This document shows positions 5,499 through 61,380 of a stretch of 64,000 bases of DNA, one piece after another. Below the pieces are notes generated by a model. The model made no database searches, had not been told where the DNA came from, and saw nothing but the letters and a program-made list of their open reading frames with translations. Made by a program: the position numbers and the translations under genes. Location of the stretch: the NCBI RefSeq assembly GCF_017161565.1, contig NZ_CP066796.1:1798001-1862000 (forward strand), read 5' to 3'. The first letter of the stretch is position 1. Every line of letters begins with the position of its first letter. The stretch is from Erwinia amylovora (GTDB taxonomy: Bacteria > Pseudomonadota > Gammaproteobacteria > Enterobacterales > Enterobacteriaceae).

Positions 5499-5745
5499 CA
5501 GTTCCTTATTCTTTAGTTACAACATACTAAAGAGTCTAGCACCAAAACAGGAGATGAGCATCAGCCTCTGAATAAAAAAATTCAGTCAAGGGAAGAGAGG
5601 TATTACCTGAAACGATTTCCGGTTGGGGGATTATGCCGTTTACGCCAGATGATCAACAAACGATAAATGAAGCATGATTACCGTTTGTCGTAAGAGGTAA
5701 ATGTTATTAAATTTCCGCCGGGATAATTTATTAGGGAAAATACTT

Positions 5746-6543
5746 ATGACAAAAACAGCTCTTCTTTTACTGATTTCTTTCGGTTTGGTTTCCTGCACAA
5801 AAACCAACGGCAGTGAATATCAAACGAAGATAGATCAGTTCACCTCAGAAAAAGTGAATCAAATCCTCCGCGATAAGGTCATTGCAAACGGTAGCGAAGA
5901 ACACGGTGAATGGGTGGGTTCCGTATCGTCGGCCTTCCTGAATACCCCATACAAAGGCAACACCTTAATCGGATCGGCGGATATGAAAGAAGTGCTGGTG
6001 GCGGATTTCAATGGAGTCGATTGTTTCACCCTGATTGACTACGTTGAAGCACTGACACGTGCTGGTAATCAGCGAGATTTTCTTAACAACCTTGTCGCGA
6101 CAAGGTATGCACAGGAACATGTTGACTATTACAGCAGGAAGCATTTTTTCACTGACTGGTTTGCAATCGCCCCGCAGAACGCTGCCGATGTCACTGGTGA
6201 TATCAGTCCTGACTATGTCAGCATGTACAAGAACCTTAACGTAAAGGCTGACGGCGGCGAATATATATCCGGCCTCGGCGTCAGGCCCAGAGAAATAAAT
6301 TTCATTCCCGGCGATAAAATCGATGCCGTGGTGCTGGATAATCTGAGAACTGGCGATTACGTGGGCGTCTATTCTACACAGGCGGGGCTGGATGTTTCAC
6401 ATACGGGAATAGTGATCAAGCGTGATGGAAATGTGTGGTTCAGAAATGCTTCTTCGCTATCGCATAACATGAAGGTAGTTGATTCGCCCTTTGTGGAATA
6501 TATGTCAACAAAGCCAGGCTTCATTGTTCTACGCGCCAAATAA
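5746..6543 (+). CDS. DUF1460 lipoprotein, amidase-like
   Basis: A 265-residue envelope protein. The N-terminus MTKTALLLLISFGLVSC is a lipoprotein signal with a lipobox ending at Cys, which favours the start at 5746 over the longer frame from 5701. The body fits DUF1460, an N-acetylmuramoyl-L-alanine amidase-like family with a papain/NlpC-type fold. The likely catalytic Cys is in NGVDCFTLIDYVEAL and the His in DVSHTGIVI. The role in cell-wall turnover is inferred from the family. It stands alone between tus and ynfM and has no obvious operon partner. Confidence 0.8.
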   Translation: MTKTALLLLISFGLVSCTKTNGSEYQTKIDQFTSEKVNQILRDKVIANGSEEHGEWVGSVSSAFLNTPYKGNTLIGSADMKEVLVADFNGVDCFTLIDYVEALTRAGNQRDFLNNLVATRYAQEHVDYYSRKHFFTDWFAIAPQNAADVTGDISPDYVSMYKNLNVKADGGEYISGLGVRPREINFIPGDKIDAVVLDNLRTGDYVGVYSTQAGLDVSHTGIVIKRDGNVWFRNASSLSHNMKVVDSPFVEYMSTKPGFIVLRAK

Positions 6544-6696
6544 TTGCATCGTAATCATTCCCTTATCCGCACCGCGGCATGCGGCGCGGATAAGGAAAAC
6601 GAACAGGCTTAGCAACAAAACAGCGTGCAGAGAAGGCGGATTGCGAAGGTTGGCGACAGCTACGCCGGTGAAGCCCGGCGCAGGTGCAAACAACAA

Positions 6697-7965
6697 TTAC
6701 AGTTTTCTGGCGTGCAATCTTGCACCCACCCACAGCGCCAGCAGCAGCAGAACGGTAATAAAAGCGCTAATGCCGTACCAGCCAAAATAATGCCAGAACA
6801 CGCCGCCTGACGTACCTGCTACGCTGGAACCAAGGTAGTAAAAAAAAAGATACAGTGAAGAAGCCTGACCGCGCGCGCGACGGGCGCGTACGCCAACCCA
6901 GCCGCTGGCGACTGAATGCGCGGCAAAGAAACCGGCGGCAAACAGCATCATGCCCAAGAAGATCGACCAGATGTTACTTGACAGAGTCATAAATAGTCCG
7001 GTCAGCATAATGGCCGTTGAGAAGATCAGCACCGGGGCACGACCATATTTTGCCGTCATCACTCCCGCTTTCGGTGAACTCCATGAACCGGTCAGGTAGA
7101 CGACCGACAGCAGACCCACCACCGCCTGGTTGAGCGAAAAGGGAGCCGACAACAAACGATAGGCAATATAGTTGAACAGAGTAACAAATGACCCCATCAA
7201 CAGAAATCCTTCGGCAAACAGCAAAGGCAACCCGCTATCGCGCCAGTGCAGGCGAAAATTCAGCAGCAGGTGACGAGGTTTAAGCGATGTCGGCTGGAAA
7301 TTGCGCGACGGCGGCAAGATTTTCCAGAACATTATCGCTGCTGCCAGAGATAAGCAGCCTATAACCATCAATGCGATGCGCCAGCTGCTGAATTCAGTGA
7401 TAACCCCGCTGATCAGGCGGCCGCTCATACCGCCTATAGAGTTACCGCCGATGTAAAGCCCCATTGAAAAGGCCAGTACGCCGGGGTGGATCTCTTCGCT
7501 AAGATAAGACATCCCCACTGCCGCCACGCCGCTTAACGCCAGGCCGGTCAGCGCACGCATCAATAAAATACCATGCCAGCTGGTCATGGCAGCGGAAAAC
7601 AGGGTGCAAATGGCGGCAAGCAGCAGCGCCGTAACCATCACCGATTTGCGACCGATGGCATCGGATAATGGCCCTGTAACCAGCAGGCCAAGCGCCATCA
7701 TTCCGGTGGCGATAGACAACGAAACGCTGCTGGCGGCAGGGGATACGCCGAATTCATGCGACAGAACCGGCAGAACAGGCTGTACGCAATAGAGCTGAAC
7801 AAAGGTCGCCAGCCCGGCCGAGAACAGCGCCAACGTCACTCGCATAAACTGCGGCGTGCCGCGTTTGATATACACATTTTTGTTGCTTGCAGTAGTCGAT
7901 ACAGGGATGGACGCTGACCGTTCAGCACGATTGGGCAGCGTGACGGCCTGAGAGGAGCGGTTCAC
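6697..7965 (-). CDS. ynfM: MFS transporter, YnfM type
   Basis: A 422-residue inner-membrane major facilitator with about twelve hydrophobic segments. The MFS signature DAIGRKSVM lies in the loop between helices 2 and 3, and ARRARGQASSLYLFFYYLGSS is towards the C-terminus. It resembles E. coli YnfM, an arabinose-efflux-like permease whose substrate is not settled. The start is GTG at 7965 with an AAGGA ribosome-binding site seven bases upstream. It is divergent from the LysR-type gene at 8082, as in E. coli, so YnfL probably controls it. Confidence 0.9.
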   Translation of the reverse strand: MNRSSQAVTLPNRAERSASIPVSTTASNKNVYIKRGTPQFMRVTLALFSAGLATFVQLYCVQPVLPVLSHEFGVSPAASSVSLSIATGMMALGLLVTGPLSDAIGRKSVMVTALLLAAICTLFSAAMTSWHGILLMRALTGLALSGVAAVGMSYLSEEIHPGVLAFSMGLYIGGNSIGGMSGRLISGVITEFSSWRIALMVIGCLSLAAAIMFWKILPPSRNFQPTSLKPRHLLLNFRLHWRDSGLPLLFAEGFLLMGSFVTLFNYIAYRLLSAPFSLNQAVVGLLSVVYLTGSWSSPKAGVMTAKYGRAPVLIFSTAIMLTGLFMTLSSNIWSIFLGMMLFAAGFFAAHSVASGWVGVRARRARGQASSLYLFFYYLGSSVAGTSGGVFWHYFGWYGISAFITVLLLLALWVGARLHARKL

Positions 7966-8081
7966 TTTGGATCCTTGAGGTTATTGAGAGTTATCAGCCT
8001 GTAAAGGGTAAGAAAGATGATTTATGATGTCTAATATATTAATAATCTGAAATGATACTTCAGAGATATGAATTAAGAGAT

Positions 8082-8981
8082 ATGAATATGGAATTGCGTC
8101 ATCTGCGCTATTTTATCGCCGTAGCGGAAGAACTGCATTTTGGTCGTGCTGCACTTCGGCTTAATATCTCACAACCGCCGCTTAGTCAGCAGATCCAACT
8201 GCTTGAGCAGGAAATAGGTGCGCGATTATTCGCCCGCACCAATCGTAGCGTGCGGCTAACTGCGGCCGGTGAGCAATTTTACAAGGATGCCAGCCTCATC
8301 CTGCAGCAGGTTGGCCAGGCGGCTGACAAAGCGGCGAGACTGCATCGCGGGGATGAAGGGGAGTTGCGTATCGGATTTACCTCATCCGCTCCGCTGATTA
8401 ACGCGGTGTCAAATGCCCTGTTTACCTTCCGTCAGCGTTACCCGGCGGTTCATGTCGAAATGCAGGAGATAAACACGCGTCAACAGCTGGCTCCGCTCAG
8501 TGATGGGCGACTTGATTTAGGCGTCATGCGCAACACCGTGCTGCCTGAAACTTTTCATCATCAGGTACTGCTACAGGAGCCAATGTATGCACTGGTGCAC
8601 CGTGCGCACCGCCTGGCAAACCGACAGCAGATCGCGTTAAGTGAACTGACGCTGGAGCCATTCGTGTTCTTCGACCCGGGCGTAGGCACCGCCCTTTACG
8701 ACGAAATCATCCGGCTGCTGCAACGGTATGATATCCAGCCTGATATTGCCCAGGAAGTGGGGGAGGCGATGACCATTATTGGTTTAGTTTCAGGCGGGCT
8801 GGGCGTTTCGATTCTCCCAGCGTCATTTCACCGGGTGCGGCTGAATGATGTTGTGTGGATCCCCCTGAAAGAGCAGGATGCGCGTTCAGAAGTTTGGCTG
8901 GTGTGGTCCAGGCAACGAGAAATGCCTGCGGTAGCTGCTGCCATGAAGGAATTATTACTGCCGTCTGGCACAAATTCGTAA
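8082..8981 (+). CDS. ynfL: LysR-type transcriptional regulator YnfL
   Basis: A 299-residue LysR-type regulator. The N-terminal winged helix-turn-helix runs from MNMELRHLRYF to about residue 60 (LNISQPPLSQQIQLLEQEIGARLF). The C-terminal effector domain ends with the motif EVGEAMTIIGLVSGGLGVSILP. The start at 8082 is chosen because E. coli YnfL begins MNIELRHLRYF; an upstream in-frame ATG at 8052 would add ten unlikely residues. It is divergent from ynfM, which is the classic arrangement for a LysR regulator and its target. The ligand is unknown. Confidence 0.9.
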   Translation: MNMELRHLRYFIAVAEELHFGRAALRLNISQPPLSQQIQLLEQEIGARLFARTNRSVRLTAAGEQFYKDASLILQQVGQAADKAARLHRGDEGELRIGFTSSAPLINAVSNALFTFRQRYPAVHVEMQEINTRQQLAPLSDGRLDLGVMRNTVLPETFHHQVLLQEPMYALVHRAHRLANRQQIALSELTLEPFVFFDPGVGTALYDEIIRLLQRYDIQPDIAQEVGEAMTIIGLVSGGLGVSILPASFHRVRLNDVVWIPLKEQDARSEVWLVWSRQREMPAVAAAMKELLLPSGTNS

Positions 8982-9147
8982 AAAAGATGACCACTTCAAG
9001 TAAGTTATGTGCTGTAAATCACATTCCGATTCAGGCAGTTGACGCCATCTGCGAAGTGTTTCACCATGAACCGATAGCGATAACGTCACCGCCAATATTG
9101 GCAGATTTCAATGACCTTGCAGCAAAAGGTGATAACAAGGAGCAGAT

Positions 9148-10365
9148 GTGATTACGGATAGCCTGCCCGGACATATTGATCATATTAAGCAAATGAATGC
9201 CGGGATCGTCTATCGGTTAATCGACCGCTATGGCCCGGTATCGCGTATTGATCTGTCCAAAAAAGCGAGTCTGTCCCCGGCCAGTATCACCAAAATCGTA
9301 CGAGAGCTGCTGCAGGCCCATCTGGTGAAGGAAACCGAATTCCACGAGGCGGGAAGCCGGGGACGGCCGGCGACTGGACTGGTTCTTGACAGTCAGGCCT
9401 GGCACTTCCTTTCGGTACGAATCGGCCATGGCGAGATCGACATTGCGCTTCGCGATCTGAGCACCCAATTGGTTGCCGAACAGCAACTTCCCTTGCCGGC
9501 AGTGGCAGAAGAACCTTTGCTGGCGCGCATTCTGCAACATATTGAGCGGTTTTTCATCCTACACCAGCATCGACTCGAACGTCTTACCGCGATCGCTTTT
9601 ACCCTGTCGGGCAGCATCAACAGCCGTACCGGCATTGTTCAGCACTTACCGTTCTATCAGGCAGATAACCTGCCACTGGGTCCGGAAATGGAGAAACGCA
9701 GCGGGCTTCCTGTTTTCATTCAAAATGATATCTGTGCCTGGACCAGGGCAGAATCGCTGTTTGGTGCCTCGCGCGATGCCAGCGATATCATTCAGGTAGT
9801 GATTGGTCAGAATGTCGGTGCCGCAGTGATGACGACAGGTCAGCTGCTCCACGGCGGCGGCAACACAATGGCCGAGATTGGACATATTCAGGTCGATCCT
9901 TGTGGTCAGCGCTGCTACTGCGGTAACCGGGGTTGCCTTGAGACGGTTGCGGGCATCGACAACATATTGAAGCTGGCCGCGCAGCGACTGTCGGCGTCGA
10001 CGGGTTCTGTCCTGCATAATCAGCCACTGACGATCGACAATTTGTGTGATGCGGCACTGCACGGAGATCGTCTGGCCTGCGACATTATCGTCGGGGTGGG
10101 CAGCAGTCTGGGACGGATCCTGGCCATCATGGTCAATCTCTTCCATCCACAGAAAATTCTCATCGGTTCACCGCTCAACCGCGCCCGGTCGGTTCTGTTC
10201 CCGGCTATTGTTGGCTGTATTCGCCAGCAGGCCCTACCAACCCTGAGCGCTGAACTTAGCGTAGAACCCACAAGATGGGTTCAGTCCGGCACCCTGTCCG
10301 GCGCAGCGCTGGTTAAGGATGCGCTCTATAACGGGTCGCTGCTAATCAGACTGCTGCAAGGCTGA
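9148..10365 (+). CDS. mlc: Mlc, ROK-family glucose-responsive repressor
   Basis: A 405-residue ROK repressor equivalent to E. coli Mlc (dgsA, 406 residues), which represses ptsG, manXYZ and other sugar uptake genes and is sequestered by dephosphorylated EIICB-Glc. The N-terminal helix-turn-helix contains SRIDLSKKASLSPASITKIVREL. The zinc site is in the ROK signature GHIQVDPCGQRCYCGNRGC near residues 247-265. The C-terminus NGSLLIRLLQG is the E. coli Mlc end. The start is GTG at 9148, behind AAGGAG. ynfK follows directly, as in E. coli. Confidence 0.96.
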   Translation: MITDSLPGHIDHIKQMNAGIVYRLIDRYGPVSRIDLSKKASLSPASITKIVRELLQAHLVKETEFHEAGSRGRPATGLVLDSQAWHFLSVRIGHGEIDIALRDLSTQLVAEQQLPLPAVAEEPLLARILQHIERFFILHQHRLERLTAIAFTLSGSINSRTGIVQHLPFYQADNLPLGPEMEKRSGLPVFIQNDICAWTRAESLFGASRDASDIIQVVIGQNVGAAVMTTGQLLHGGGNTMAEIGHIQVDPCGQRCYCGNRGCLETVAGIDNILKLAAQRLSASTGSVLHNQPLTIDNLCDAALHGDRLACDIIVGVGSSLGRILAIMVNLFHPQKILIGSPLNRARSVLFPAIVGCIRQQALPTLSAELSVEPTRWVQSGTLSGAALVKDALYNGSLLIRLLQG

Positions 10366-10378
10366 CAGATGACCAAAC

Positions 10379-10394
10379 ATTGCGCTAGCGCAAT
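10379..10394. repeat. Perfect 16-bp palindrome between mlc and bioD2
   Basis: ATTGCGCTAGCGCAAT is a perfect 16-base palindrome fourteen bases past the mlc stop codon. It has no loop and no T tail, so it is a weak terminator candidate and could instead be a protein-binding site. Confidence 0.4.
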
Positions 10395-10484
10395 CTACGG
10401 TCACCGGTAGTGTCCTACACTTTTTCCTCAAACTGAGCATCAAAACATCCATCGGCCCAAACCGGGCCTGCCGGAGTCATTTCT

Positions 10485-11146
10485 ATGTCAACACGATTAT
10501 TTGTCACTGGAACAGATACAGAAGTCGGGAAAACGGTGGTATCGCGCGCTTTATTGCAAAAGCTGGCCGCTGAAGGTCAACGCAGTGTCGGTTATAAACC
10601 GGTGGCTAAAAGCAGCAAGAATACGGCCGGGGGGCGTGTAATCAGGATGCGTTGGTGTTGCAGGCCTCTTCTTCCGTTACCTTGCCCTGGCAGGCGATAA
10701 ACCCGTTAACGCGGCTGGATGACGCGTTCATCACCAGCCCGACGCCGGTCAGTTTTGAGTCATTGAGCGGTGGGCTGAAAGCGCTGGACGACCACGCCGA
10801 CTGTATCATCGTTGAAGGCACGGGAGGATGGCGTAGTCTGATGAGCGATCTGCGCCCGTTATCAGATTGGGCAGTGCAGGAGCAGCTGCCGGTGGTACTG
10901 GTTGTGGGCATTAAGACAGGCTGTATCAGCCACGCTCTGTTGACCGCCCAGGCGGTGATAAATGATGGCCTGCCGCTGTTGGGCTGGGTGGCTAACCGCA
11001 TTAACCCGGGCCTGGCGCACTATGCAGAAATCATTGACGTACTGCGCGGAAAAATCCCGGCACCGCTGCTGGGGGAGGTGCCTTATCTGCCGCGCCCGGA
11101 AACACGTGACCTGGCGCAATATCTTGACCTGTCACCTCTGGCATAA
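10485..11146 (+). pseudogene. ynfK: Dethiobiotin synthase paralogue YnfK/BioD2, frameshifted
   Basis: Dethiobiotin synthase forms the ureido ring of dethiobiotin from DAPA, CO2 and ATP. The N-terminal P-loop frame [21 protein letters not shown] is open from 10485, and the remainder (NQDALVLQ to EVPYLPRPETRDLAQYLDL) is in another frame to 11146. The switch falls at a six-G run (10629-10634). One extra G joins the halves and gives exactly the residue spacing of E. coli YnfK. The restored protein would be about 220 residues. This is the paralogue next to mlc, not the bioD of the biotin operon. The break is either a homopolymer error or real loss. Confidence 0.88.
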
Positions 11147-11244
11147 CGGCGGCAGCCAAGGCCGAGCGCGCCGGACTTAACGGGAACTCTCCGGTTGCCT
11201 GCTGCTGCGGGCAATCAGCAACATCATATTGCGTTATGGCTTCT

Positions 11245-11257
11245 GTGACGTTGTCAC
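11245..11257. promoter_or_regulatory. Operator-like palindrome, copy 1
   Basis: GTGAC GTT GTCAC is a perfect 5+5 inverted repeat with a 3-base spacer, preceded by TTCT. A second copy with the same flank lies at 11458-11470. Repetition of the same palindrome upstream of one efflux gene suggests a repressor or activator site. The cognate regulator is not identifiable here. Confidence 0.45.
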
Positions 11258-11457
11258 ATGCAGCTTTTCTGCTTACGGCCGGTGCGCGAGCGTTGCTCCT
11301 TATCTGCCGTTCGCCTGTCTCAATCATCCGGCTGGCTGTAATTCATACGACAAGCCCGGTGCTAAATGACTTCATTAAATAATCACGTCCAGGCTAAACT
11401 GTCGGCAACGCGCGCAAACCAGCGATAGCCCGCAATGGATTTGCGGAGAATACTTCT

Positions 11458-26380: not shown

Positions 26381-26515
26381 TTAACTGCTTCGAACCCCTG
26401 GCGCTCTTCCCGTCGCTGACGGCGGTCACGCGGCATATCGGGCTGGGGAACAGTTCGCCAGGCATCCATGTTGAATGAATACTTCTCTGAGTGTAAATTT
26501 ATGCAGGTCTTTGTT

Positions 26516-26534
26516 GATAATGATTATCATTTGT
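26516..26534. promoter_or_regulatory. Fur box
   Basis: GATAATGATTATCATTTGT closely matches the 19-bp Fur consensus GATAATGATAATCATTATC. It lies about 115 bases before the TonB-dependent receptor, so the receptor should be iron-repressed. Confidence 0.85.
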
Positions 26535-26649
26535 ATATGATAGCGCACGCCAGTCGATTATTTGTCCCGCGAAATGATGAGGGGACCGTCTAATGCCGTT
26601 ATGGAAGCTATGCCTGAGCCTATACTCATAAACCATTCAGGTGTTTACC

Positions 26650-29039
26650 ATGTTCAATTTTTTTTTATACCCTCAGGGTATTTTTCACAGCACACTGATG
26701 ATGGGGGCGCTGTTTAGCGCCGCCATTACCACCACCAGCACCGCTGCACCACAGAGCGATATGCTGGCGGAAAACCGCTCCGGCCAGCAACAGAAATTGT
26801 CAGCCACGCCAGAGGATGATGCGCTAATGACCGTGCTTTCCCCCCCGGTTAAAAAGGGGCCGGAAGCAAGGTCAGTATTAACGCCGCGGATATGCAGCAA
26901 CGCGGTGCTAATGACTTTGGTTCCATCATGCGCTATCAGCCGCTGATCGGTGCGGTGGGCAGCAGCAGTGGTTCAGGTAGCGGAAAAAGCGGTTTTGACC
27001 GCGCGGGCTACGCCGGTTACAACATCCGTGGCCTGGAAAGTAACCGTGTGGCACTTAGCGTTGATGGCATCCCACAGCCGGATGCCACTGGCCGGGGCTA
27101 TGGCAGCCGTTCAGGAGTGAATACCGTTGGCATCGGGCGCGATTATATCGACCCGTATCTTTATGGCCGGGTAGATATTGAAGCCGGAGCGACGGCGACA
27201 TCACGCGCTAATACCGCGATGGGCGGTTCGGTCTCCTTCCTGCCAAAATCGGCAGACGATTATCTGCTGCAGGATAAACAAAGCTACTTTGGCTATCAGA
27301 GCGACTACGACTCTGCTAACCGTAGTTGGCATAATGGCATCACCGCAGCCGCCGGGGACGGGGATGTGCGCGGCCTGATTGCATACAGCCGCCGCGATGG
27401 GCAACAAACGCGTAATAACAGCGCCGTGCTGGATGCCTATCCCGCTAACTGGCATTCGGATGCCGTGCTCACTTCAGCGATCTGGCAGCCTGATGAACAG
27501 CATAAGCTGGCCGCTACCGTCGATGTCTACAGCAAAGTGAATCATAGCCGCTATGCAAGCTGGACTGACCGATTCAAAGAGCCGCTGGGTGAAGCTCACC
27601 AGCAAAGCAATACGCGGCGCTGGGGAATAAGCCTGAAGGATGAATGGATGCCAGACAATGACTGGATCGACAGTCTGAACAACAAAATCTATTTCCAGCA
27701 AACCGAAGCGCATGATAATACGTTAACTCCGCAGGAATTGCCGTCAACGGGCTATTCGCGCACCTATTCCGACTACAACGTCAAAACCTGGGGCTATAAA
27801 GCTCAGCTGGTGAAAACAGAGGGCCGCCATGCGATTTTGGCGGGAGTCAACGCCCAGCTTTCGGACAGTGAACGGCCGTTCAGCCAGTCGCCCATGCAGA
27901 CGGTAACGAAACCGCAGGCCGACAGCCGTACCCTGACGCTGGGGGCTTTTTTACAGGACAGTATACAGTATGACGTTGCTGGCCACGGTTTGGCCGTGGT
28001 GCCGGGAATACGCGTGGCGCATCAGGAAACAAAGCCGCAAAACCTGGCGAATATGGCTACCGGTACCGACGTCCTGACGCCCGATGATGCGCAAAAGCTG
28101 TACGGAAAAGCCAGCAGTGACAGCCAGCTGCTGCCATCCCTCAGTTTCAATTACGATCTAACTCCCGGATTGATGACATACCTGCAATACAGGCGTGGGG
28201 CGCAGTTCCCCAATGCCAGCCAACTTTATGGTTCCTGGAACCTGGGCAGTAACTATATTCCGGGAGCGCAATATGCGTTAATCGGTAATACCGGCCTGAG
28301 TACTGAAACCAGCAATAACATGGAGTGGGGGATAAAAGGACAGGTAAATGAAGCGGTAACTATCAACGCCTCACTGTTTTACAACACCTACAAAAACTTT
28401 ATTGCTTACACCCGTTATGGCCGGGTCAGCCATCCGGACAAGTTTGTCAATGTCCCTTCAAATATTGCGACGATTTATCAGGCGGAAAATCGAGATAATG
28501 CGTATATCCGGGGCGGGGAAATCAGCACTAAAATTCACTACGGTATCTGGTCAGATGAGTTGAGTGGTCTGAACAGCACCTTTGCACTTGGCTACAGTCA
28601 GGGTAAATCTAAGTCCAGTTACAGTGGCGACAAATATGTGGGCCTTGACAGTGTTGCGCCGATGAAAGCCATTCTCGCAATGGGTTGGGATGACCCGGCA
28701 CAGCGTTACGGGGCTGCGCTAACCGCGACCTTTGTCAAAGGTAAACAGGCAGAAACCACCAACCGTGAAGCCTGGCTGAATAACGGCAGCGAACTGACCG
28801 ATTCCGTCAGCGAATATACGCGCGTGCCGGGCTACGGGGTGGTGGATCTCAGTGCCTGGATGAAAGTCAGCAAGCAGGTTAAGTTGAATGGCGGGATCTA
28901 TAACCTGACCGATCGCAAATACTGGGATTACCTGAGCAGCCGCACTCTTAGCGGGCAGACAGCGCGCAATATGAATGACCGCGCCTTAGCCGTTATGCCG
29001 GGGCGTAACTTCCAGCTGGGCGTGAATGTTGAATTCTGA
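26650..29039 (+). pseudogene. TonB-dependent haem/haemoglobin receptor, frameshifted
   Basis: An outer-membrane receptor of the haem/haemoglobin family. The first frame holds the signal sequence and the start of the plug and runs to 26946. The main frame from about 26862 reads GSKVSINAADMQQRG and continues through the plug (YAGYNIRGLESNRVALSVDGIPQPD) and the 22-strand barrel to a terminal Phe. The frames meet at AAAAAGGGG (26851-26859). One added base gives KKGAGSKVSINAADMQQRG, which looks natural, and about 795 residues overall. A Fur box upstream supports iron control. TonB box and partner uptake genes are not next to it. The break is either an error in a homopolymer or an inactivating lesion. 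Confidence 0.85.
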
Positions 29040-53339: not shown

Positions 53340-55744
53340 AATCGCTAAATAACATTCTGTCAGCACAGGCCAAAAACCAGGGTGATGCCCTGACGCAAGG
53401 CATCGGCCAGGCGCTGGAATGGCTGGAGGTGAACCGCCAGCTGGCTCCGCGGCTTAACCGGGAAGCTGACCGTCTGACAAGCAAACTACTGCGCCAGCAT
53501 AACCGGGCCGTCGTGCTGGCGCGCCAGGCAGAACAGCCATGCGCCATCGGGCTGTTTGGCCTGGCTCAGGCCGGTAAGTCGTATCTGGTGAACGCACTGG
53601 CCGCCAGCAGCAAAGGACGCATCGAATGCGCGCTCGGCAACAGCGTATTGGATTACGCCAGCCAGCTGAATCCGCAGCAGCAGACGGCTAACCTGGTGCT
53701 GCGTTTCAGTGGCCGGCAGCACAGCAGCGACAGCCGCTGGCCGGTTCAGCTGGACCTGCTCACCGAATGTGAAATAGTGGCCATCCTGGCGCTGCAATAT
53801 CATCAGACTTGCGGTTCTCATCCCGGTGAAACGGCGGCCTTCGACGAGCAGCAGCTGGAAGATAAAGTGCAGAATGTGGCGATGTATCGCCAGCCGGAGG
53901 GGATCGACGGCATTGACCGTCACCAGATGGTCGCGCTGTGGGACGCTATCCGTTTGATCCTGCCGGCCAACTCCGCGCTGGAGAGTCATTTCTGGCCGCA
54001 GGCGACCGAACTGGCCCCGCAGCTCGGCGTGGACGAACGTGCGCGACTGTTTTCGCTGCTGTGGGGCGAAGACCGCCAGCTTACCGCGCTTTACCGTCAG
54101 CTGGCGCACGTATTACATCATCTTTCTTGCGTGGAGCAGGTGCTGGCCCCGCTTAGCGTGCTGGATGAGCCTTGCTACAGCCTGCTCTACAGTTCCGGGG
54201 TCAGCCAGTTTAATGCTGCCACCGACCTGACAATACAGGTGCTGCCACGCCATAACGGGCGCGGGCTGGCTCCGGTCAGCGTGGCGCTGGCAGAATTAAC
54301 CCTGTTAAGCCGGGAAATCGTGCTGCCGCTGTACAGCGCACCGCGTGAAGAACTGTTCAGCGAGGTCGACCTGCTGGATTATCCCGGATTCACCACTCCT
54401 TCGGTACTGCCGGATGATGAGCAGTTTGCGCTGGCGCTGCGCTTTTTGCAGGCACGCCGTCCGTTTCTGTTACAGCGCGCGGCGCAACAACAGGACGTCA
54501 CCCATCTGCTGGTATGCAGTGCAGCGGCTCACCGTAACGAGACCCGCCGGGTGGGGCTACTGCTCGACTTCTGGGTGAAACAGACTCAGGGAGAAACCAG
54601 TGCTTTACGCAGTGGACGCAAGCCGGGCCTGATCTGGGCAATGACACCGTTCGATCAGCGTATCACCCACGGTCATCATTGCGATGCGGCGGTACAACGC
54701 TTCGTGGGCAATCCGGGCGATGCCTGGGGCGCGATGCTGGCGATGGATGAGAAAGGCTTGCAGCGCATGACCGGTTATCTGGTTAACGAAGTGCAGCGCG
54801 GCGGCAAGCTGCAACGCATTGCCAGCCAGCGTACTGAGATCCAGCGCGAGCTGACGGAAAACCTGCTGGGCTGCTGGCATCAGGAGGCGGATGGTGAACA
54901 TCCGGCACAGCGCACGCGTATTGCTGAAACGCTGCTAAAAGCATTACAGACGCGTACCGGCGTGCACGGTGAACTGCTGGAGCGTCTGGTGCCGGTGCGT
55001 GATACTCTGCGCCATCTGTTCCTGCAGCGTCAGCATCAGCTCAACCGCAGCGCCGCCGATGAATACCGCATCAGCGAGGACGACCCATTCGGAATCGGTA
55101 TGACCATCGACCTGTTAAGCGACCAGCCGCTGACAGCGGTGCAAAGCAGCTATCACCATGCGCCGCTGGTCGATCATGAGGTGGAATTTGCGCAAAACGT
55201 CTATTGTCATTGGGTTAATCAGCTGCGCCTGTTGCCGGATAACGGCCCGCTGTTGGCGTTGCTGGGCATCAGTAAACCCACGCTGGAGAGGCTAACCGAA
55301 GAGCTGATCACCGCCAGCGTACGTCAGCAGCTGGAAGATGCGCTGATCCGCGTGTTGGCCGACAGCGATACGCACGGACTGCCCGCCGAACAGATCGCCG
55401 ATCGTCAGGTATCACGCGCGCTTAGCGTACTGGGGGATTTTGTTGCGTGGCTGGGTTTTCAGCAGCTGCCAGAAACACAGCGGCCGGAAAGCCGCATCAA
55501 TCCAGGGCAGAAAATTTTTGCCAAACCTGAAGCGCAAACCGTCAGTCTGGGGCCGGACCAGCGTTTAAACCGGCTGGCGCTGAAGCCGAACAATCATGCC
55601 GCGTTTTATATTTACGACTGGCTGGTTGCCCTGAACGAGATGATTGTGCAAAACGCCGGTTATGCTGCCTCAGGCGAAATCAGCCCGGAGCAGCGGCAAA
55701 AACTGGCGCAGATATTAACGCGGCTGGCCCGTAAGGATGAATAG
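53336..55744 (+). CDS. srfC: SrfC, dynamin-like GTPase
   Basis: An 802-residue SrfC-family protein. The P-loop GLFGLAQAGKS is at residues 72-82 (G1) and DLLDYPGF at residues 345-352 (G3, DxxG). A long helical C-terminal half follows, as in bacterial dynamin-like proteins. The distance between G1 and G3 is unusually large, so a substantial insertion lies in the GTPase domain. It overlaps srfB by four bases and ends the operon. The function is unknown; SrfABC has been described as a virulence or cytotoxic factor in other enterobacteria. Confidence 0.9.
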   Translation: MKSLNNILSAQAKNQGDALTQGIGQALEWLEVNRQLAPRLNREADRLTSKLLRQHNRAVVLARQAEQPCAIGLFGLAQAGKSYLVNALAASSKGRIECALGNSVLDYASQLNPQQQTANLVLRFSGRQHSSDSRWPVQLDLLTECEIVAILALQYHQTCGSHPGETAAFDEQQLEDKVQNVAMYRQPEGIDGIDRHQMVALWDAIRLILPANSALESHFWPQATELAPQLGVDERARLFSLLWGEDRQLTALYRQLAHVLHHLSCVEQVLAPLSVLDEPCYSLLYSSGVSQFNAATDLTIQVLPRHNGRGLAPVSVALAELTLLSREIVLPLYSAPREELFSEVDLLDYPGFTTPSVLPDDEQFALALRFLQARRPFLLQRAAQQQDVTHLLVCSAAAHRNETRRVGLLLDFWVKQTQGETSALRSGRKPGLIWAMTPFDQRITHGHHCDAAVQRFVGNPGDAWGAMLAMDEKGLQRMTGYLVNEVQRGGKLQRIASQRTEIQRELTENLLGCWHQEADGEHPAQRTRIAETLLKALQTRTGVHGELLERLVPVRDTLRHLFLQRQHQLNRSAADEYRISEDDPFGIGMTIDLLSDQPLTAVQSSYHHAPLVDHEVEFAQNVYCHWVNQLRLLPDNGPLLALLGISKPTLERLTEELITASVRQQLEDALIRVLADSDTHGLPAEQIADRQVSRALSVLGDFVAWLGFQQLPETQRPESRINPGQKIFAKPEAQTVSLGPDQRLNRLALKPNNHAAFYIYDWLVALNEMIVQNAGYAASGEISPEQRQKLAQILTRLARKDE

Positions 55745-55836
55745 ATAACTATCGAGGTCGCCGGCCAGCCCCCGGCGTTACCGGGCTTCCTGCTGCTTTC
55801 TGTACCGTGTGATTGATATTTAATCCCGTCACCGGG

Positions 55837-57330
55837 TTAAGTCTGGCTCGCTGTGCCGCGATGGCCAGAGATGACGGGGCCGGCACCGGGCGGAAGCGAA
55901 CGCGCAAACAATGCATCTAAATAAGCAGCGATTGGCGTGATGTCAGAAAGCGAAGAAGATACCGCAATGTACGAGTCCGGGCGCACCAGCATAATGAGCT
56001 GCCTGTACGGACTCATCTCTTCATCAATGTGCATCACTTTTACAAACGACGGCATATTCAACGTCACCTTGCTGTCGCCAAAGACCAGAAGCGTGAAGAA
56101 ACGATAGTCAAGAAGCGTATAAATCCGCGTGCTTGTCTGCCCGCCATCGCAGGTTACTATGAAGTCTGACAGGCGTTTACCGTGCAGTTCATGTTCACCG
56201 TAGTGAATGCCCATCCCTGTCACGTATCCGGCCCGGCTTTCGACTATTTTCAGATAGTCAGCCGCGTGCGTTCCCTCATTTGAGTATTTTGTCGCGCGTA
56301 CCAGCTCGGCAGACGTCTTCACCACGCCGGATGCCACCGGTTTACGCTCTTGCTGGTAAAGTCGGAGCAGTGGCCATGACGCGCCATGCCTCAACACCAT
56401 GTTTATTTTCCACATGAGGTTAAAAGCATCCGCCAGTCCGGTATTAAGGCCCAGGCCACCATTAACCGAATGAACATGACAGGCATCGCCCGCCAGGTAA
56501 ATTTTGTCGCTGATGGCAAAGTGTTCGGCCACTGACTCCTTCACCGAAAATTGAGAAAACCAAACGATCTTCCTGAAACACAACCTGTATGGCTGCATGG
56601 CGAGGTTAATCCTCGCAATAACCTGCTCAATGGTGAAAATTTTTGTATCCATACGCACATAAAAACGGTCCAGATCCCTTTCGCGCGGAACCCACGCCAC
56701 TTCAGCAGTCGCGTTCTGGAAAACAATAATCTCCGGTGTCTTGGGGAAGTCGGTATAAATGATGCCATCCAGCACGGCCCAGCTGATTTGTGGACGGGTC
56801 ACCTCGAAGGGAACGTTGAAATGATGACGTACCCACGAGTGTGCGCCATCAGCACCGATGGCCAGTCTGGAATGGAGCGTCTTGCCGGTTGATAATATTG
56901 TTGTACATCCCTCATCACTGACCTTGATATCTATCACGGAGGTGTTGCGGCAGACTGCAGCACCAGCACCCTGTAGCTTATCATCCAGTAAGTGTTCCAA
57001 ATGCGTCTGCCCGAGCATCAGAAAATGCTTGTGAAAACAGCCTTCCAGCTCATCCCACCACTGAGTCTGACGCAACACGAATCCCCCGTTGGTCCATACG
57101 GAACTCGTTCTGCACGGTTTTCCCTCAGGATAGAGAGAGTCAAACAGATTGACGATCTCCAGCAGTTGCAGAGTGCGCGCATTCAAGGCATCTGCCCGCC
57201 CCACCGTCAGTGGCCCTGGCGTAGTATCTACGATCGCCATTTGCAGGCCGCATAACCGGCCGAGCCAGGCGCAAAGTAACCCTACAGGACCGGCCCCGAT
57301 GACCACAACGTCTGTTTTCGGCGTACTCAT
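55837..57330 (-). CDS. FAD-dependent aromatic monooxygenase of the isonitrile operon
   Basis: A 497-residue single-component flavoprotein hydroxylase of the PheA/TfdB/MhpA type. It begins with the FAD motif VVVIGAGPVGLLCAW at residues 8-22, has the DG motif AIGADGAHSWVR near 168, and the FAD/GD motif YLAGDACHVHSVNGGLGLNTGLADAFNLMWK near 280. The C-terminal thioredoxin-like domain is present. It overlaps the pvcB-like gene by four bases, so it is the last gene of the operon. It probably hydroxylates the aromatic ring of the isonitrile product. It is not related to the HpaB-type PvcC of P. aeruginosa. Confidence 0.85.
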   Translation of the reverse strand: MSTPKTDVVVIGAGPVGLLCAWLGRLCGLQMAIVDTTPGPLTVGRADALNARTLQLLEIVNLFDSLYPEGKPCRTSSVWTNGGFVLRQTQWWDELEGCFHKHFLMLGQTHLEHLLDDKLQGAGAAVCRNTSVIDIKVSDEGCTTILSTGKTLHSRLAIGADGAHSWVRHHFNVPFEVTRPQISWAVLDGIIYTDFPKTPEIIVFQNATAEVAWVPRERDLDRFYVRMDTKIFTIEQVIARINLAMQPYRLCFRKIVWFSQFSVKESVAEHFAISDKIYLAGDACHVHSVNGGLGLNTGLADAFNLMWKINMVLRHGASWPLLRLYQQERKPVASGVVKTSAELVRATKYSNEGTHAADYLKIVESRAGYVTGMGIHYGEHELHGKRLSDFIVTCDGGQTSTRIYTLLDYRFFTLLVFGDSKVTLNMPSFVKVMHIDEEMSPYRQLIMLVRPDSYIAVSSSLSDITPIAAYLDALFARSLPPGAGPVISGHRGTASQT

Positions 57331-58205
57331 TCTGACCTCACAAGATGATGGTTAGCGATTTGTGGACGGCCATGGATGTGCACCCGGCGCAGGTGACGGC
57401 CAGAATGGTGGGTGTATTGCTCGCGACCGTGCAGCAGCGATAAGTTGTCACTGAGAACGAAATCACCCGTCTGCCACTGATGCGCGTAATATACCCGCGG
57501 ATCCCGCAGCGTTTTCATCAGGCTGACAAGCAGCATCTCTTCTTCGTCTTTATTGATCCCCCCGAACGAATAACTTGAAGGATTGAGGAAGGTTGCATCA
57601 TTTTCGTCCGGTGGTTCGCAGAAGCGTATAACGGGAAATTCACGCAGTGGATGGATGCCGATAATGGGCGCTTCTACCGTGTTGCTGTAAAGTTCGACTG
57701 AGCGCTGATAGCGCCCGTGAGCGCGCGCCCACAGCTCCCGGACGGCTGGTGTTGCAATACGCAGCGCCGCGTTAGTACTCGAAAATGTCGTCCGTCCGCC
57801 CTGCATGTCGCCGGCGGCATGGACACACTGGAAAAGCTGGAATTCCGGCACGGTGTCAAGGTACATCCCATCCCAATGCAGCGGCACATAGCTGTTAGCA
57901 AAAATGTGGTCGTCAGGATTAGCGTGCTCAACCAGTTCGAGCACGGCACCATAAGGCCACATCATTATCTCACCAAAGGTCGCACAATAGCGGGTCAGGC
58001 TGTCACTGCTGGCGAAATGATCAAAACCACGCAGTACCACCAGCTGATGGCTGTACACCAACGCTCGCAGCCATGTTACGGACAGCTCACCGATATGACG
58101 GCCCGCACGGCACGGTTTTATCAATATCCCAAAGGAGCAGGGTTCTCCGGTTTCCCCGGTCAGCGGCGCCACGTCCAGGGTGTCTGGCAGGTCGGCGGGG
58201 TTCAT
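57327..58205 (-). CDS. pvcB: PvcB-type Fe(II)/2-oxoglutarate dioxygenase
   Basis: A 292-residue TauD/TfdA-family dioxygenase. The iron ligands are HWD at residues 110-112 (HxD) and the distal His in LLHGRE at residue 259, with a conserved Arg in the HSGRHLRRVHIHG segment that would bind 2-oxoglutarate. In known pathways PvcB-type enzymes convert the tyrosine or tryptophan isonitrile acid to the vinyl isonitrile with loss of CO2. It overlaps both neighbours by four bases, in the order pvcA, pvcB, FAD gene. Confidence 0.88.
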   Translation of the reverse strand: MNPADLPDTLDVAPLTGETGEPCSFGILIKPCRAGRHIGELSVTWLRALVYSHQLVVLRGFDHFASSDSLTRYCATFGEIMMWPYGAVLELVEHANPDDHIFANSYVPLHWDGMYLDTVPEFQLFQCVHAAGDMQGGRTTFSSTNAALRIATPAVRELWARAHGRYQRSVELYSNTVEAPIIGIHPLREFPVIRFCEPPDENDATFLNPSSYSFGGINKDEEEMLLVSLMKTLRDPRVYYAHQWQTGDFVLSDNLSLLHGREQYTHHSGRHLRRVHIHGRPQIANHHLVRSE

Positions 58206-59206
58206 GGCATCTTCCTTTTTGCTAAATCACAATGATCGCGCAGCGCCGGGCAACCGATTTGATAATGACTCTGCTGATTATCCCGCATCACAATATGCGC
58301 CCTCAGACTTTCGGCCTCACTGCGTATCATCAGCACAAACTTGCCCTCTTCCTCAACGGCCACCCCGTGCCACGGGGTCAACCAACTGTCCTTTGTTGGT
58401 ATCATATGAATGCCGATTTTCTGGCTGTGAGCCGGCTGCGGGTGGATCGACAGGCGAATGGCTTGTGGAAAATGATGTGCAAGCAGCGCGCCCCATGCCT
58501 GACTACGTTTAATAACCCGGATAGCACGTTGTCTGGAGTCTTGCTGCAATTTGCTTTTGGAGCCGGAATAACCCGGCATCAAACCGTCTTCGTAAAGAAA
58601 GCGGGTGATGGCACAATAAAGTCGCCGTCCTCCCTCCTCCGTCATCAGCTGCCGCTTGATCGCTTCGACAGGATGTGCAAATTCATCAATCAGCCTCTGG
58701 CGAATTTCATCGAAGCTGCCGGCACAGTCTGCAAACGGTTGGAAATCCTCAAGGTTGAACAAATCAAGACGGTTTGCCCGCTGATCGGCAATAAGTTGTC
58801 GTATACCCGCCTGATAAGCGCTAATTTTCTCATCGCTGGTGCGAATAAGATCGCCAAAAACCCGACCATCGGAGCAAATAGTTAATTTTGCCCCTGGGGG
58901 ATATATCCGCTCTATCCGTTGGCAAAAATCATTGAGAAACGCCAGCGATATCCTTTCTGCCATATCGGGTAAATACCCCAGCACTTTATTCTTATTGGGT
59001 GATTTAGCCGGAAACGCAGGCAATATAAATTCAATCGGCCGGTTAGCCTTGACAAAGGCTTTTATTTTAGAATGATGGGTTTTTTTAAAGCATTCGCATA
59101 AATCGCGATGATCCGGGCAAGATTTATACGCCGAATAACCTCGTCGGTTTCGATCTATTTCCCTGAGGATCAACAGGGGACTGTCTGAATGAATGTGAAC
59201 TGACAT
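58202..59206 (-). CDS. pvcA: PvcA-type isonitrile synthase
   Basis: A 334-residue protein of the DIT1/PvcA family. It contains IEFILPAFPAKSPNKNKVLGYLPDMAERISLAFLNDFC and the CSDGRVFGDLI motif, which mark isonitrile synthases. These enzymes join the alpha-amino group of tyrosine or tryptophan to a carbon from ribulose 5-phosphate to give an isonitrile acid. It is the first gene of the operon, behind an AT-rich region (59207-59488) that must hold the promoter. Whether the substrate is Tyr or Trp cannot be settled from the sequence. Confidence 0.9.
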   Translation of the reverse strand: MSVHIHSDSPLLILREIDRNRRGYSAYKSCPDHRDLCECFKKTHHSKIKAFVKANRPIEFILPAFPAKSPNKNKVLGYLPDMAERISLAFLNDFCQRIERIYPPGAKLTICSDGRVFGDLIRTSDEKISAYQAGIRQLIADQRANRLDLFNLEDFQPFADCAGSFDEIRQRLIDEFAHPVEAIKRQLMTEEGGRRLYCAITRFLYEDGLMPGYSGSKSKLQQDSRQRAIRVIKRSQAWGALLAHHFPQAIRLSIHPQPAHSQKIGIHMIPTKDSWLTPWHGVAVEEEGKFVLMIRSEAESLRAHIVMRDNQQSHYQIGCPALRDHCDLAKRKMP

Positions 59207-59488
59207 GTGATAACCTCACTGATTACTTGAAAAATAAAACGCTGCCCATGGCAGGTAATATCGAAAAAGCAGGTAGTTGCCACTTCCCATTTTATATATA
59301 TGCCAAAAATAGCGAGATTATTCGCCGATTGTTAGCTTATACATTTTGAATTGATTTTTTTATATCCCGGTTAACACGGGACGTGGGTAATTAAATAACC
59401 CGTCAGCTGGAATAAAGTCAGGGGAATAGGAAGTTAAACGGTCAGTTTGTTTTGTTTTTTTGCTGCCGGCACCCTCCGGCTAACATCA

Positions 59489-59755
59489 TTAACGGATATG
59501 AACGCTGAATGCCCCGCCCGTTTCCTGCTCTGCTTCCTTCATCACCGCCACAATGCGCTCCAGCCCGGCCTGCTGTGGATGGCCTTGCAGATGGCGTAGT
59601 GTGATGCATAGCGGCAACGGCACGCCGCCGGTAAGTACATCCCAGAGTGCATCCTGATTGGCACCAAACACGTCGAGGTTAAATTTGAGCGCAAACTGAC
59701 GGTAAAAGTCAGCGCTGTCCTCCATACGCTGTAAATCGAAGTCGACCCGCTGCAT
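59489..59755 (-). CDS. Barstar family RNase inhibitor
   Basis: An 88-residue barstar-like inhibitor (ADFYRQFALKFNLDVFGANQDALWDVLTGGVPLPLCITLRHL), with the central Asp-rich/aromatic helix region that plugs the barnase active site. It starts one base after the barnase-type gene ends on the same strand, so the pair is translated together. It protects the host from the RNase. Confidence 0.9.
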   Translation of the reverse strand: MQRVDFDLQRMEDSADFYRQFALKFNLDVFGANQDALWDVLTGGVPLPLCITLRHLQGHPQQAGLERIVAVMKEAEQETGGAFSVHIR

Positions 59756-59756
59756 C

Positions 59757-60227
59757 TTAGTTCACCCGCTCGAAATGACGATAGTGGTCGTTGGTTACAA
59801 AGATAAGCCCGTCGCTGGAGTACAACATCCGATCCGTGCCACGGTGGCCGCACTGGTAGTTGACATCGGCCTCAAACCAGCGCCGCCCGGCCTTGTCCGG
59901 TAGCCCGCCCTCACGATTGCTGAAGCGGTCACCGCCAATCGCTTTACCGGGCAGCACGCTGCACAGGTTGCCCTTTGCCGGATCCCATCCCTGGCGCCGT
60001 GCTTCTGCCTTACGCATGTAGTAGCCCGGCAGCCGATCATGCTGTTGGAGGTAATCCGCCACGCGTCGCTGCTGCGTCAGTACGCTGATATTACGGCTAT
60101 CCGAACGGGCAGCGCCGATCTGCGCCTCGGGCCTGCTGGCGGGCGCGGGCGCTTGCCAGGGCTTTAGTGACAGGGCATAGCTGGCGATAATGGCCAGCAT
60201 GGCCACGATGATCCGTTTTTTATTCAT
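59757..60227 (-). CDS. Barnase-type secreted ribonuclease
   Basis: A 156-residue guanyl-specific RNase. After an N-terminal hydrophobic signal/anchor (residues 1-20) comes a domain that aligns closely with B. amyloliquefaciens barnase: ISVLTQQRRVADYLQQHDRLP, GWDPAKGNLC, KAIGGDRFSNREGGLP, FEADVNYQCGHRGTDRMLYSSDGLIF and DHYRHF. The catalytic residues map to Glu119, Arg133 and His148. Barstar lies immediately downstream. It is an envelope or extracellular RNase, or an export-ready toxin with an immunity partner. Confidence 0.92.
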   Translation of the reverse strand: MNKKRIIVAMLAIIASYALSLKPWQAPAPASRPEAQIGAARSDSRNISVLTQQRRVADYLQQHDRLPGYYMRKAEARRQGWDPAKGNLCSVLPGKAIGGDRFSNREGGLPDKAGRRWFEADVNYQCGHRGTDRMLYSSDGLIFVTNDHYRHFERVN

Positions 60228-60360
60228 CAGCGCGGTTCAACCAATCCTTAAGCCTGGTGGATGAAAAAGCACATTATCTGGTCGGGTAAGCGCTGCTGTT
60301 ACTTTGTCAGCGCCGGGAACAGCAGCAGCCCGATGGATGTGCCGGATGAGTTAGCCGATA

Positions 60361-61380
60361 TTAAATCAAACTGGCGGCACGTAGTTCCGCCTTAAGATAG
60401 GCATAATAAACCGGCGCGGCAATCACCCCGGCAAGGCCAAACGCCGATTCAAATACCAGCATCGCCAGCAGGATTTCCCAGGTTTTTGCGCTGATACGGC
60501 TGCCAAAAATGCGCGCATTGATAAAGTATTCCAGCTTATGGATCAGCACCAGATAAACCAGCGCAATCAGCGCGGCTTCAAGTGAAATAGATAGCCCGAT
60601 CAGCACAATAACCGTATTGGAAATCAGATTACCGATAATCGGCAGCAGTCCGGCGATGAAGGTCAGCACCACGACGGTTTTGGCAAACGGGAAATGCAGG
60701 CCGAATAGCGGCAGTACGCCAAATAAAAATGCCCCGGTCAGTACGGTATTCACCAGTGAGACCTTGATTTGGGCAAAAACAACATTGTGGAATGCCGCCG
60801 CCAGAATGCTCAGGCGATCGAGCATGGCTTCTTTTAGCGGCGCATCGGGACGTTTGCCCACGCTGATGCGCAGTGAGATGATCGCACCAAGCAGCATACC
60901 GATAAGCATGGTGGCAAAGGTATGCGCGGCGTTACGGCCAAAGGTCTGCACAACCACCAGATGTTCACGCAGCCAGCCAATTATCCGGGTCTGTAATTCA
61001 TCGATGTCAGACGGCAGATAACGGGTAATCACCGGCGAGAGCGTGTGCTGGGCATCCTCCAACAGTTTGCTGGCGGTAGCGTGGAAAGCGGCAGGATTTT
61101 GTAAGTCGTTTAGCATAAAGCCAATCAGTTTGGTGATGCCAGTGACCAGCGCCAGAATCAACATCACGCTAAGAAACATAATGCTGATCCAGCGGGCGAC
61201 AGGACCTTTCACCAGCCTTTCTACCAGCGGCGTGAGCGCCAGGATGGTTTCATAAACGATAAAGCCGGCCAAAAAACAGGGCAACAAACGTAACGGGAAG
61301 ATCGCATACAGTGCGGCACATACCAGCAGGTAACTGGCGGCCTGGCAAAGCGTTACACGATCGTAGTTCCTTATTTCCAT
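60361..61380 (-). CDS. ydiK: AI-2E family transporter YdiK
   Basis: A 339-residue inner-membrane protein of the AI-2E/DUF20 family with about eight hydrophobic segments, and the conserved segment PLFGLHFPFAKTVVVLTFIAGLLPIIGNLISN. The start at 61380 (MEIRNYDRVTL) is chosen over a much longer open frame to 61572, because the latter part is not protein-like. The match to E. coli YdiK is by sequence pattern. Substrate unknown. Confidence 0.88.
   Translation of the reverse strand: MEIRNYDRVTLCQAASYLLVCAALYAIFPLRLLPCFLAGFIVYETILALTPLVERLVKGPVARWISIMFLSVMLILALVTGITKLIGFMLNDLQNPAAFHATASKLLEDAQHTLSPVITRYLPSDIDELQTRIIGWLREHLVVVQTFGRNAAHTFATMLIGMLLGAIISLRISVGKRPDAPLKEAMLDRLSILAAAFHNVVFAQIKVSLVNTVLTGAFLFGVLPLFGLHFPFAKTVVVLTFIAGLLPIIGNLISNTVIVLIGLSISLEAALIALVYLVLIHKLEYFINARIFGSRISAKTWEILLAMLVFESAFGLAGVIAAPVYYAYLKAELRAASLI

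What the first reader, a model, noticed from the sequence alone, without database searches (positions are those of the whole stretch)
55837..59206. Three-gene isonitrile natural-product operon with a non-canonical hydroxylase
Seen: three minus-strand genes with 4-base overlaps, in the order DIT1/PvcA-type isonitrile synthase, TauD/TfdA dioxygenase with intact HxD...H, and a single-component FAD aromatic hydroxylase. Known: PvcA/PvcB or IsnA/IsnB pairs make vinyl isonitriles from Tyr or Trp in Pseudomonas and Xenorhabdus. Inference: a new arrangement in which a PheA/TfdB-type enzyme, rather than the HpaB-type PvcC, hydroxylates the ring, possibly giving a dihydroxylated isonitrile. Such compounds can bind copper or iron or inhibit phenoloxidase. 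The AT-rich upstream region suggests silencing under standard conditions.
Basis: partly seen in the sequence, partly recalled or inferred. Interest (0 to 1): 0.75.

Follow-up and report, generated by a model that had tools for sequence, protein, structure and literature searches.

The report
Isonitrile operon with dedicated flavin hydroxylase
The fire-blight bacterium carries a small inserted three-gene operon that probably turns tyrosine into a ring-hydroxylated isonitrile, and its third enzyme belongs to a little-studied family that sits beside isonitrile genes in many unrelated bacteria.

Summary
Three intact minus-strand genes (55837-59206) with two ATGA overlaps encode a PvcA-type isonitrile synthase, a PvcB-type Fe/2OG desaturase and a class A flavin hydroxylase, in an Erwinia amylovora genome.

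The interpretation needs two corrections. (1) The desaturase has the Leu/Cys pair of isocyanoacrylate-forming PvcB, not that of vinyl-isonitrile enzymes. (2) The arrangement is not new: the flavin enzyme (NCBIfam NF005531, 'FAD-binding protein', no function given) lies downstream of a pvcB homologue in 79 of 80 retrieved loci from at least seven phyla, 58 of 79 with the same 4-nt overlap; in the 80th the contig ends at the gene. Phenol-hydroxylase Asp/Arg/Tyr are kept in 81 of 81 sequences, and no HpaB-type (PvcC-like) enzyme was found in the genome. I infer a dedicated hydroxylase of isonitrile phenols that stands in for PvcC here.

The operon is a 3.7-kb insertion-like segment between srfC and barstar; 1 of 37 genomes of the genus has it. 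The trees suggest, without proving, that the flavin gene has changed PvcB partner. Product and chemistry are untested.

The parts
58202..59206 (-). pvcA/isnA-type isonitrile (isocyanide) synthase, 334 aa, first gene
   Evidence: PF05141 278 bits; PDB 3e59 PvcA E 3.3e-107; 44 of 45 near-invariant positions kept
57327..58205 (-). pvcB-type Fe/2OG desaturase, 292 aa, ATGA overlap with pvcA; H110/D112/H259 metal ligands, L116 and C196 selectivity residues
   Evidence: PDB 3eat PvcB E 8.6e-113; residue rule from PMC9467999, positions
55837..57330 (-). class A flavoprotein monooxygenase (NF005531/PRK07190), 497 aa, ATGA overlap with pvcB; D47/R216/Y224 match phenol hydroxylase Asp54/Arg281/Tyr289
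59207..59488 (-). AT-rich upstream region (39% GC) that should hold the promoter; the consensus scan listed no minus-strand sigma-70-like match
55790..59494 (.). 3.7-kb segment absent from the closest relative searched, where 126 bp separate the same srfC and barstar flanks
   Evidence: blastn of the window against L110
53336..55744 (+). srfC, convergent neighbour and synteny anchor, not part of the operon
   Evidence: PF10139 538 bits; 32 of 37 genus genomes, the own one included, match at E <= 1e-50
59489..59755 (-). barstar, upstream neighbour and synteny anchor, not part of the operon
   Evidence: PF01337; beside srfC in 9 of the 9 closest relatives (L110-L118)

Best explanation
An acquired three-enzyme pathway. 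Step 1: PvcA turns the amino group of L-tyrosine into an isonitrile. Step 2: PvcB desaturates the side chain and keeps the carboxylate, giving 2-isocyano-3-(4-hydroxyphenyl)acrylate. Step 3: the flavin enzyme, with NAD(P)H and O2, hydroxylates the phenol ring ortho to its OH, giving 2-isocyano-3-(3,4-dihydroxyphenyl)acrylate, a catechol isonitrile expected to bind metals. The flavin enzyme is a dedicated isonitrile-pathway hydroxylase and does here the job that PvcC is thought to do in paerucumarin synthesis. Shown by sequence: gene order, overlaps, intact catalytic residues, subtype residues, linkage across phyla, no HpaB found in the genome. Inferred: substrate, order of steps 2 and 3, product and role.
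Against: The two subtype residues are a correlation: the paper reports that single swaps in PIsnB-Ah did not change the product. 56 of 79 partner PvcBs carry Arg/Asn (vinyl type), so the family's usual substrate may be a vinyl isonitrile and action on a carboxylated one is unproven; no clear adaptive residue was found (1 column, controls 0-1). VibO, the best PDB sequence match, ring-expands its phenol and makes a catechol only as side product. The window's PvcB departs from 2 of 60 near-invariant positions, Y85 and N175. PvcA falls under the NF045653 cut-off (397 against 600 bits). One of the five other Leu/Cys genomes (P. spelaei) has an HpaB gene elsewhere.
Confidence: 0.6

Rival explanations
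1. The flavin enzyme hydroxylates twice, or hydroxylates and sets up ring closure, so that the operon makes a 2-isocyano-dihydroxycoumarin (paerucumarin-like) without PvcC and PvcD.
For: PvcB is of the P. aeruginosa type; the pvc operon makes an isonitrile coumarin (start of the abstract, and passages, of PMC3639982).
Against: No fourth gene in the operon. A single phenol-hydroxylase-type site normally adds one ortho OH; coumarin closure needs oxygen at another ring position (chemical reasoning).
Confidence: 0.15
2. The Erwinia PvcB decarboxylates like IsnB, and the flavin enzyme makes a catechol vinyl isonitrile, as forecast for the majority of the other loci.
For: 72 of 79 partner PvcBs have Arg at the first selectivity position, 56 of them with Asn at the second; the two residues do not by themselves set selectivity.
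Against: The window has Leu/Cys and lies in a Leu/Cys clade with 100/100 support in the 31-row tree; its best solved match is P. aeruginosa PvcB.
Confidence: 0.13
3. The flavin enzyme does not hydroxylate but ring-expands (oxepinone, Baeyer-Villiger) or epoxidises the isonitrile phenol.
For: Best PDB sequence match is VibO, an oxepinone-forming enzyme (abstract and passages of PMC10257657); MtmOIV, a Baeyer-Villiger enzyme, is among the top, tied fold matches.
Against: Asp/Arg/Tyr of phenol hydroxylase are invariant. VibO has the corresponding Asp and a Tyr too, so this does not settle it.
Confidence: 0.1
4. An ordinary catabolic phenol hydroxylase that lies by chance beside a pvcAB pair.
For: Several related NCBIfam families are catabolic hydroxylases (one search list).
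Against: A neighbouring pvcB in 79 of 80 loci, 58 of 79 with overlapping reading frames.
Confidence: 0.02

Closest known systems
Pseudomonas aeruginosa pvcABCD (paerucumarin)
   Same: PvcA, and a PvcB with Leu and Cys at the two positions (alignment), in that order
   Different: PvcC is HpaB-type (recalled, not from a call) and a PvcD follows; the window has an unrelated single-component FAD enzyme and no fourth gene
Xenorhabdus/Photorhabdus isnAB plus glycosyltransferase (rhabduscin; the glycosyltransferase is recalled)
   Same: isonitrile synthase then Fe/2OG enzyme
pvcB-NF005531 operons of Burkholderia, Legionella, Bdellovibrionota, Vibrio, Bacteroidota and others
   Same: same flavin family beside pvcB
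   Different: 72 of 79 have an Arg-type PvcB; only Pseudomonas (L024, L025) and Pectobacterium (L052, L076, L080) share Leu/Cys with the window
VibO and yeast phenol hydroxylase (class A flavoprotein monooxygenases)
   Same: FAD domain, substrate Asp and Tyr, overall fold
   Different: 497 aa against PDB chains of 653 and 665 aa, so a shorter C-terminal part; no recorded substrate

Membership tests
PvcA/IsnA isonitrile synthase | DIT1_PvcA domain PF05141 above cut-off | tested here: met
   278 bits against 26.4
PvcA/IsnA isonitrile synthase | NCBIfam equivalog NF045653 (L-tyrosine isonitrile synthase) above its cut-off | tested here: not met
   397 against 600 bits; the P. spelaei PvcA fails likewise, 402 bits. 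So: a PvcA-type protein, not filed as that equivalog
PvcA/IsnA isonitrile synthase | converts L-Tyr to the isonitrile | not testable with these tools
   44 of 45 near-invariant positions kept, which is compatible only
PvcB-type desaturase (isocyanoacrylate) | 2-His-1-Asp metal site | tested here: met
   H110, D112, H259; 79, 79 and 80 of 80 rows, one row being incomplete
PvcB-type desaturase (isocyanoacrylate) | Leu at the K107 and Cys at the N188 position of PIsnB | tested here: met
   L116 and C196; rule read in PMC9467999 section 12
PvcB-type desaturase (isocyanoacrylate) | keeps the carboxylate | not testable with these tools
   needs an enzyme assay; an Erwinia PvcB was characterised in print (pmid 25866990, seen only as cited; result not read)
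Class A flavoprotein monooxygenase, phenol hydroxylase type | FAD_binding_3 domain and GxGxxG, DG and GD motifs | tested here: met
   PF01494 191 bits; G12/G14/G17, D161/G162, G281/D282 invariant or 90% or more in 35 sequences
Class A flavoprotein monooxygenase, phenol hydroxylase type | Asp54, Arg281, Tyr289 of phenol hydroxylase | tested here: met
   D47, R216, Y224 by my reading of the alignment (chain numbering one higher than the literature's); 81 of 81
NF005531 (PRK07190) | score over the curated cut-off | tested here: met
   882 against 530 bits
paerucumarin (pvcABCD) operon | HpaB-type PvcC in the operon or genome | tested here: not met
   PF03241 not found in G000; so not filed as a pvcABCD operon
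rhabduscin-type cluster | glycosyltransferase after isnB | tested here: not met
   the third gene is FAD_binding_3

The most novel reading that the evidence does not exclude
NF005531 is a so far unassigned family of isonitrile-dedicated phenol hydroxylases, spread over at least seven bacterial phyla and often translationally coupled to pvcB, which makes catechol isonitriles. It has changed partner between vinyl-isonitrile and isocyanoacrylate PvcBs, and in the Erwinia, Pseudomonas and Pectobacterium lineages with a Leu/Cys PvcB it is an independent replacement for PvcC.
Probability: 0.5. Interest if true: 0.6.

Novelty: new variant of a known kind. Interest (0 to 1): 0.42.

Why it matters
If true, it gives a function to a curated but unnamed flavin-enzyme family found beside isonitrile genes in Bdellovibrionota, Legionella and plant pathogens, and predicts a class of catechol isonitriles. 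Isonitriles and catechols both bind metals, so the compounds could be metal ligands or enzyme inhibitors (inference). For the fire-blight bacterium it predicts a product for an isonitrile gene that already appears in published expression data.

Tried and rejected
Chance neighbourhood of the flavin gene: rejected by the linkage. Single-protein genome scan: 4 pattern matches, none a relative; the alignment scan worked.

Partner change of the flavin gene: the 31-row careful tree puts the window's and P. spelaei's flavin enzymes with Burkholderia (95/92) and mildly rejects the six Leu/Cys rows as one clade (p-AU 0.029). The 81-row quick tree does not reject it (p-AU 0.73, and the constrained tree was better). 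The PvcB data reject the flavin grouping strongly (p-AU 1e-4 and 9e-40). So the two genes seem to have different histories in this sample, but where the change took place is open. The 31 rows were picked by me from 81.

Residues of the flavin enzyme that track the PvcB subtype: one column (H270), no better than 42 control sets (0-1). Fur box near the operon: none; the only two matches overlap each other far off. Rfam: no match in 55000-61000. Minus-strand promoter-like site upstream of pvcA: none listed. A DJ-1/PfpI protein like that of L025 in the own genome: no match, and the tool warned that the empty answer shows nothing. Foldseek 'pdb' never ran; VIA-align was used instead.

Against a simple story for Legionella: passages of PMC5126622 say that a helix-turn-helix protein and a P450 always go with isnAB there, and a word search of its main text for FAD and flavin gave 0, whereas the Legionella loci here have the flavin gene beside pvcB, L086 excepted, whose upstream side is cut off. 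P450 genes do follow PvcB in G129 and G241, so two kinds of operon may exist; not resolved.

Not in print? Searches listed no title on this flavin family in isonitrile operons. Most subscription papers are not held, most listed papers were not opened, and a 2007 survey of isnA clusters (pmid 17880089, seen only in reference lists) could not be read, so I do not claim that it is unpublished.
Full report
WHAT IS THERE. Downstream lies a convergent srfB-srfC pair, upstream a barstar-barnase pair. The first 15000 of 28381 bases of the genome's second contig match 28-kb plasmids of Erwinia amylovora at 99.9-100% in the best records, so the host is E. amylovora.

PROTEIN 1. PF05141 at 278 bits; best solved relative PvcA, 3e59. 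It scores 397 bits against NCBIfam's L-tyrosine isonitrile synthase model, below that model's cut-off of 600, so I call it PvcA-type and not that equivalog. Against 66 relatives (7 of 73 dropped for under 30% identity) it keeps 44 of 45 near-invariant positions.

PROTEIN 2. Best solved relative PvcB, 3eat, 380 bits; next PIsnB, 7tcl, 225 bits. It keeps the metal ligands and 58 of 60 near-invariant positions of 79 relatives; it departs at Y85 and N175. A published comparison (PMC9467999, section 12 read) separates isocyanoacrylate formers (Leu, Cys) from vinyl-isonitrile formers (Lys/Arg, Asn/His) at two positions. The window has Leu116 and Cys196, the PvcB type. The same section states that single swaps do not change the product, so this is a forecast, not a test. 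An Erwinia PvcB has been characterised (pmid 25866990, seen only as cited in a passage of PMC5320501); I could not read the result.

HOW COMMON IS THE ARRANGEMENT. An alignment of 35 of the 120 listed homologues was scanned against one genome per species: 97 relatives, 80 kept, 52-70% identical to the window's enzyme. A pvcB homologue is present in 79 of 80 loci, on the same strand in 79 of 79, with the -4 overlap in 58 of 79; gaps over 60 nt are L058 (71), L049 (229) and L025 (2218). The one locus without it, L086, starts inside the flavin gene at a contig end. A pvcA homologue lies directly upstream (within 300 nt, over 130 bits) in 64 of 79. The three Pectobacterium genomes have a PvcA gene elsewhere; six Vibrio loci and one Marinomonas locus have only a distant PvcA-domain match downstream, a 608-aa protein in the one scanned (L068). 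Loci by phylum name: Pseudomonadota 40, Bdellovibrionota 22, Bacteroidota 6, Actinomycetota 4, Myxococcota 2, Melainabacteria 2, Planctomycetota 1, Cyanobacteriota 1, unnamed 2; many are metagenome bins. These loci were chosen by similarity to the flavin enzyme. The reverse view: of PvcA-bearing genomes over the cut-off, 4 of 369 in the class sample and 8 of 394 in the order sample, 11 different genomes (one order genome under the cut-off dropped), only the window's has the flavin gene in the stretch fetched, 9.6-18 kb for the other ten. Third genes scanned were P450 (G129, G241) and glycosyltransferase (G578, G527, G709), with a HAD protein after pvcB in G704; G329, G687, G725 and G665 were not scanned by family. 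So the flavin gene is one of several tailoring options, but in the loci seen it is tied to pvcB.

PARTNER TYPES. Of the 79 partner PvcBs, 56 have Arg/Asn, 16 Arg with another residue, 5 Leu/Cys, 1 Met/Asn, 1 incomplete. The Leu/Cys rows are the window, P. spelaei, P. haemolytica and three Pectobacterium, one clade with 100/100 support in the 31-row tree. In the 31-row flavin-enzyme tree the window and P. spelaei group with Burkholderia, whose PvcB is Arg/Asn (95/92). The PvcB data reject the grouping of the window, the two Pseudomonas and Burkholderia. The flavin data reject a single Leu/Cys clade only mildly (p 0.029, 31 rows) and not at all in the larger quick tree (p 0.73). I read this as likely exchange of the flavin gene between operon types, not as proof.

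ORIGIN IN ERWINIA. One of 37 genus genomes has a true pvcB (three further hits, one of them in the own genome, are 24-27% identical), and 1 of 60 genomes searched, the own one, has the flavin gene over its cut-off. Protein records show near relatives in Erwinia sp. Ejp617 (87% flavin enzyme, 455 aa; 84% PvcB). Against the closest genome (L110, SrfC 91%) the shared flanks end at window 55789 and resume at 59495, with 126 bp in between. In 9 of the 9 closest relatives (L110-L118) srfC and barstar lie side by side and no operon gene was found in the stretch. Gain in the E. amylovora line or repeated loss cannot be told apart here. The low GC of pvcA (48.7%) and of its upstream region (39.4%) favours gain; pvcB (55.9%) and the flavin gene (52.7%) do not stand out from the window (52.2%).

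NO PvcC. HpaB (PF03241) was not found in the genome, nor in 4 of the 5 other genomes with a Leu/Cys PvcB; P. spelaei has one, outside the 9.7-kb contig that holds its operon as far as the contig lengths and hit position show. That PvcC is HpaB-type is recalled, not from a call.

EXPRESSION. PMC9371280 Table 7 (section 12 part 2) lists 'isocyanide synthase family protein' EAM_RS08495 at log2 -2.27 when edcE is overexpressed in an eight-gene deletion strain of E. amylovora, alongside cas genes, NRPS/PKS genes and a GH68 enzyme. The genome searched here has a single PF05141 gene, so this is very probably the same gene in another strain. It shows that the gene is expressed enough to measure and is regulated; its company with cas genes is compatible with xenogeneic silencing (inference), which was not tested here.

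VERDICT. A real, intact and probably acquired isonitrile operon. Its novelty is less the layout in this genome than the recognition that its third gene belongs to a broad, unassigned family tied to pvcB. Chemistry, product and biological role remain to be shown.

Noticed in passing
window 59489-60227 (-): Barnase-like ribonuclease (PF00545) and barstar (PF01337) pair beside srfC, present in the same place in the nine closest relatives.
   Followed up: partly
L052, L076, L080 (Pectobacterium), about 2800-9434: A pvcB(Leu/Cys)-flavin pair without adjacent pvcA. In L052 it is preceded by a DltD-like protein, an unassigned 373-aa protein and an AMP-binding enzyme. A PvcA gene lies elsewhere in all three genomes, in L166 with a second pvcB. 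Possibly an isonitrile joined to another building block.
   Followed up: partly
L025 5785-7558 (Pseudomonas haemolytica): Between pvcB and the flavin gene lie an AraC-type regulator with a DJ-1 domain and a separate DJ-1/PfpI protein. Isonitrile hydratases are of the DJ-1 kind (recalled), so this may be an isonitrile-processing or self-protection enzyme.
   Followed up: partly
L068 10756-12582; similar distant matches in L043, L044, L051, L079, L088, L093: Vibrio and Marinomonas loci have, downstream of pvcB-flavin, a distant DIT1_PvcA match; in L068 it is residues 41-289 of a 608-aa protein whose rest is unassigned.
   Followed up: no
L163 (G665) 4583-11306: PvcA- and PvcB-domain ORFs of 862 and 697 aa, perhaps fusions, plus a second PvcA-like gene, in a contig of the same order.
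   Followed up: no
window 26510-26536, before the TonB-dependent receptor at 26892-29039: Two overlapping Fur-box-like matches (0.14 expected in the window), likely an ordinary iron-uptake locus.
   Followed up: partly
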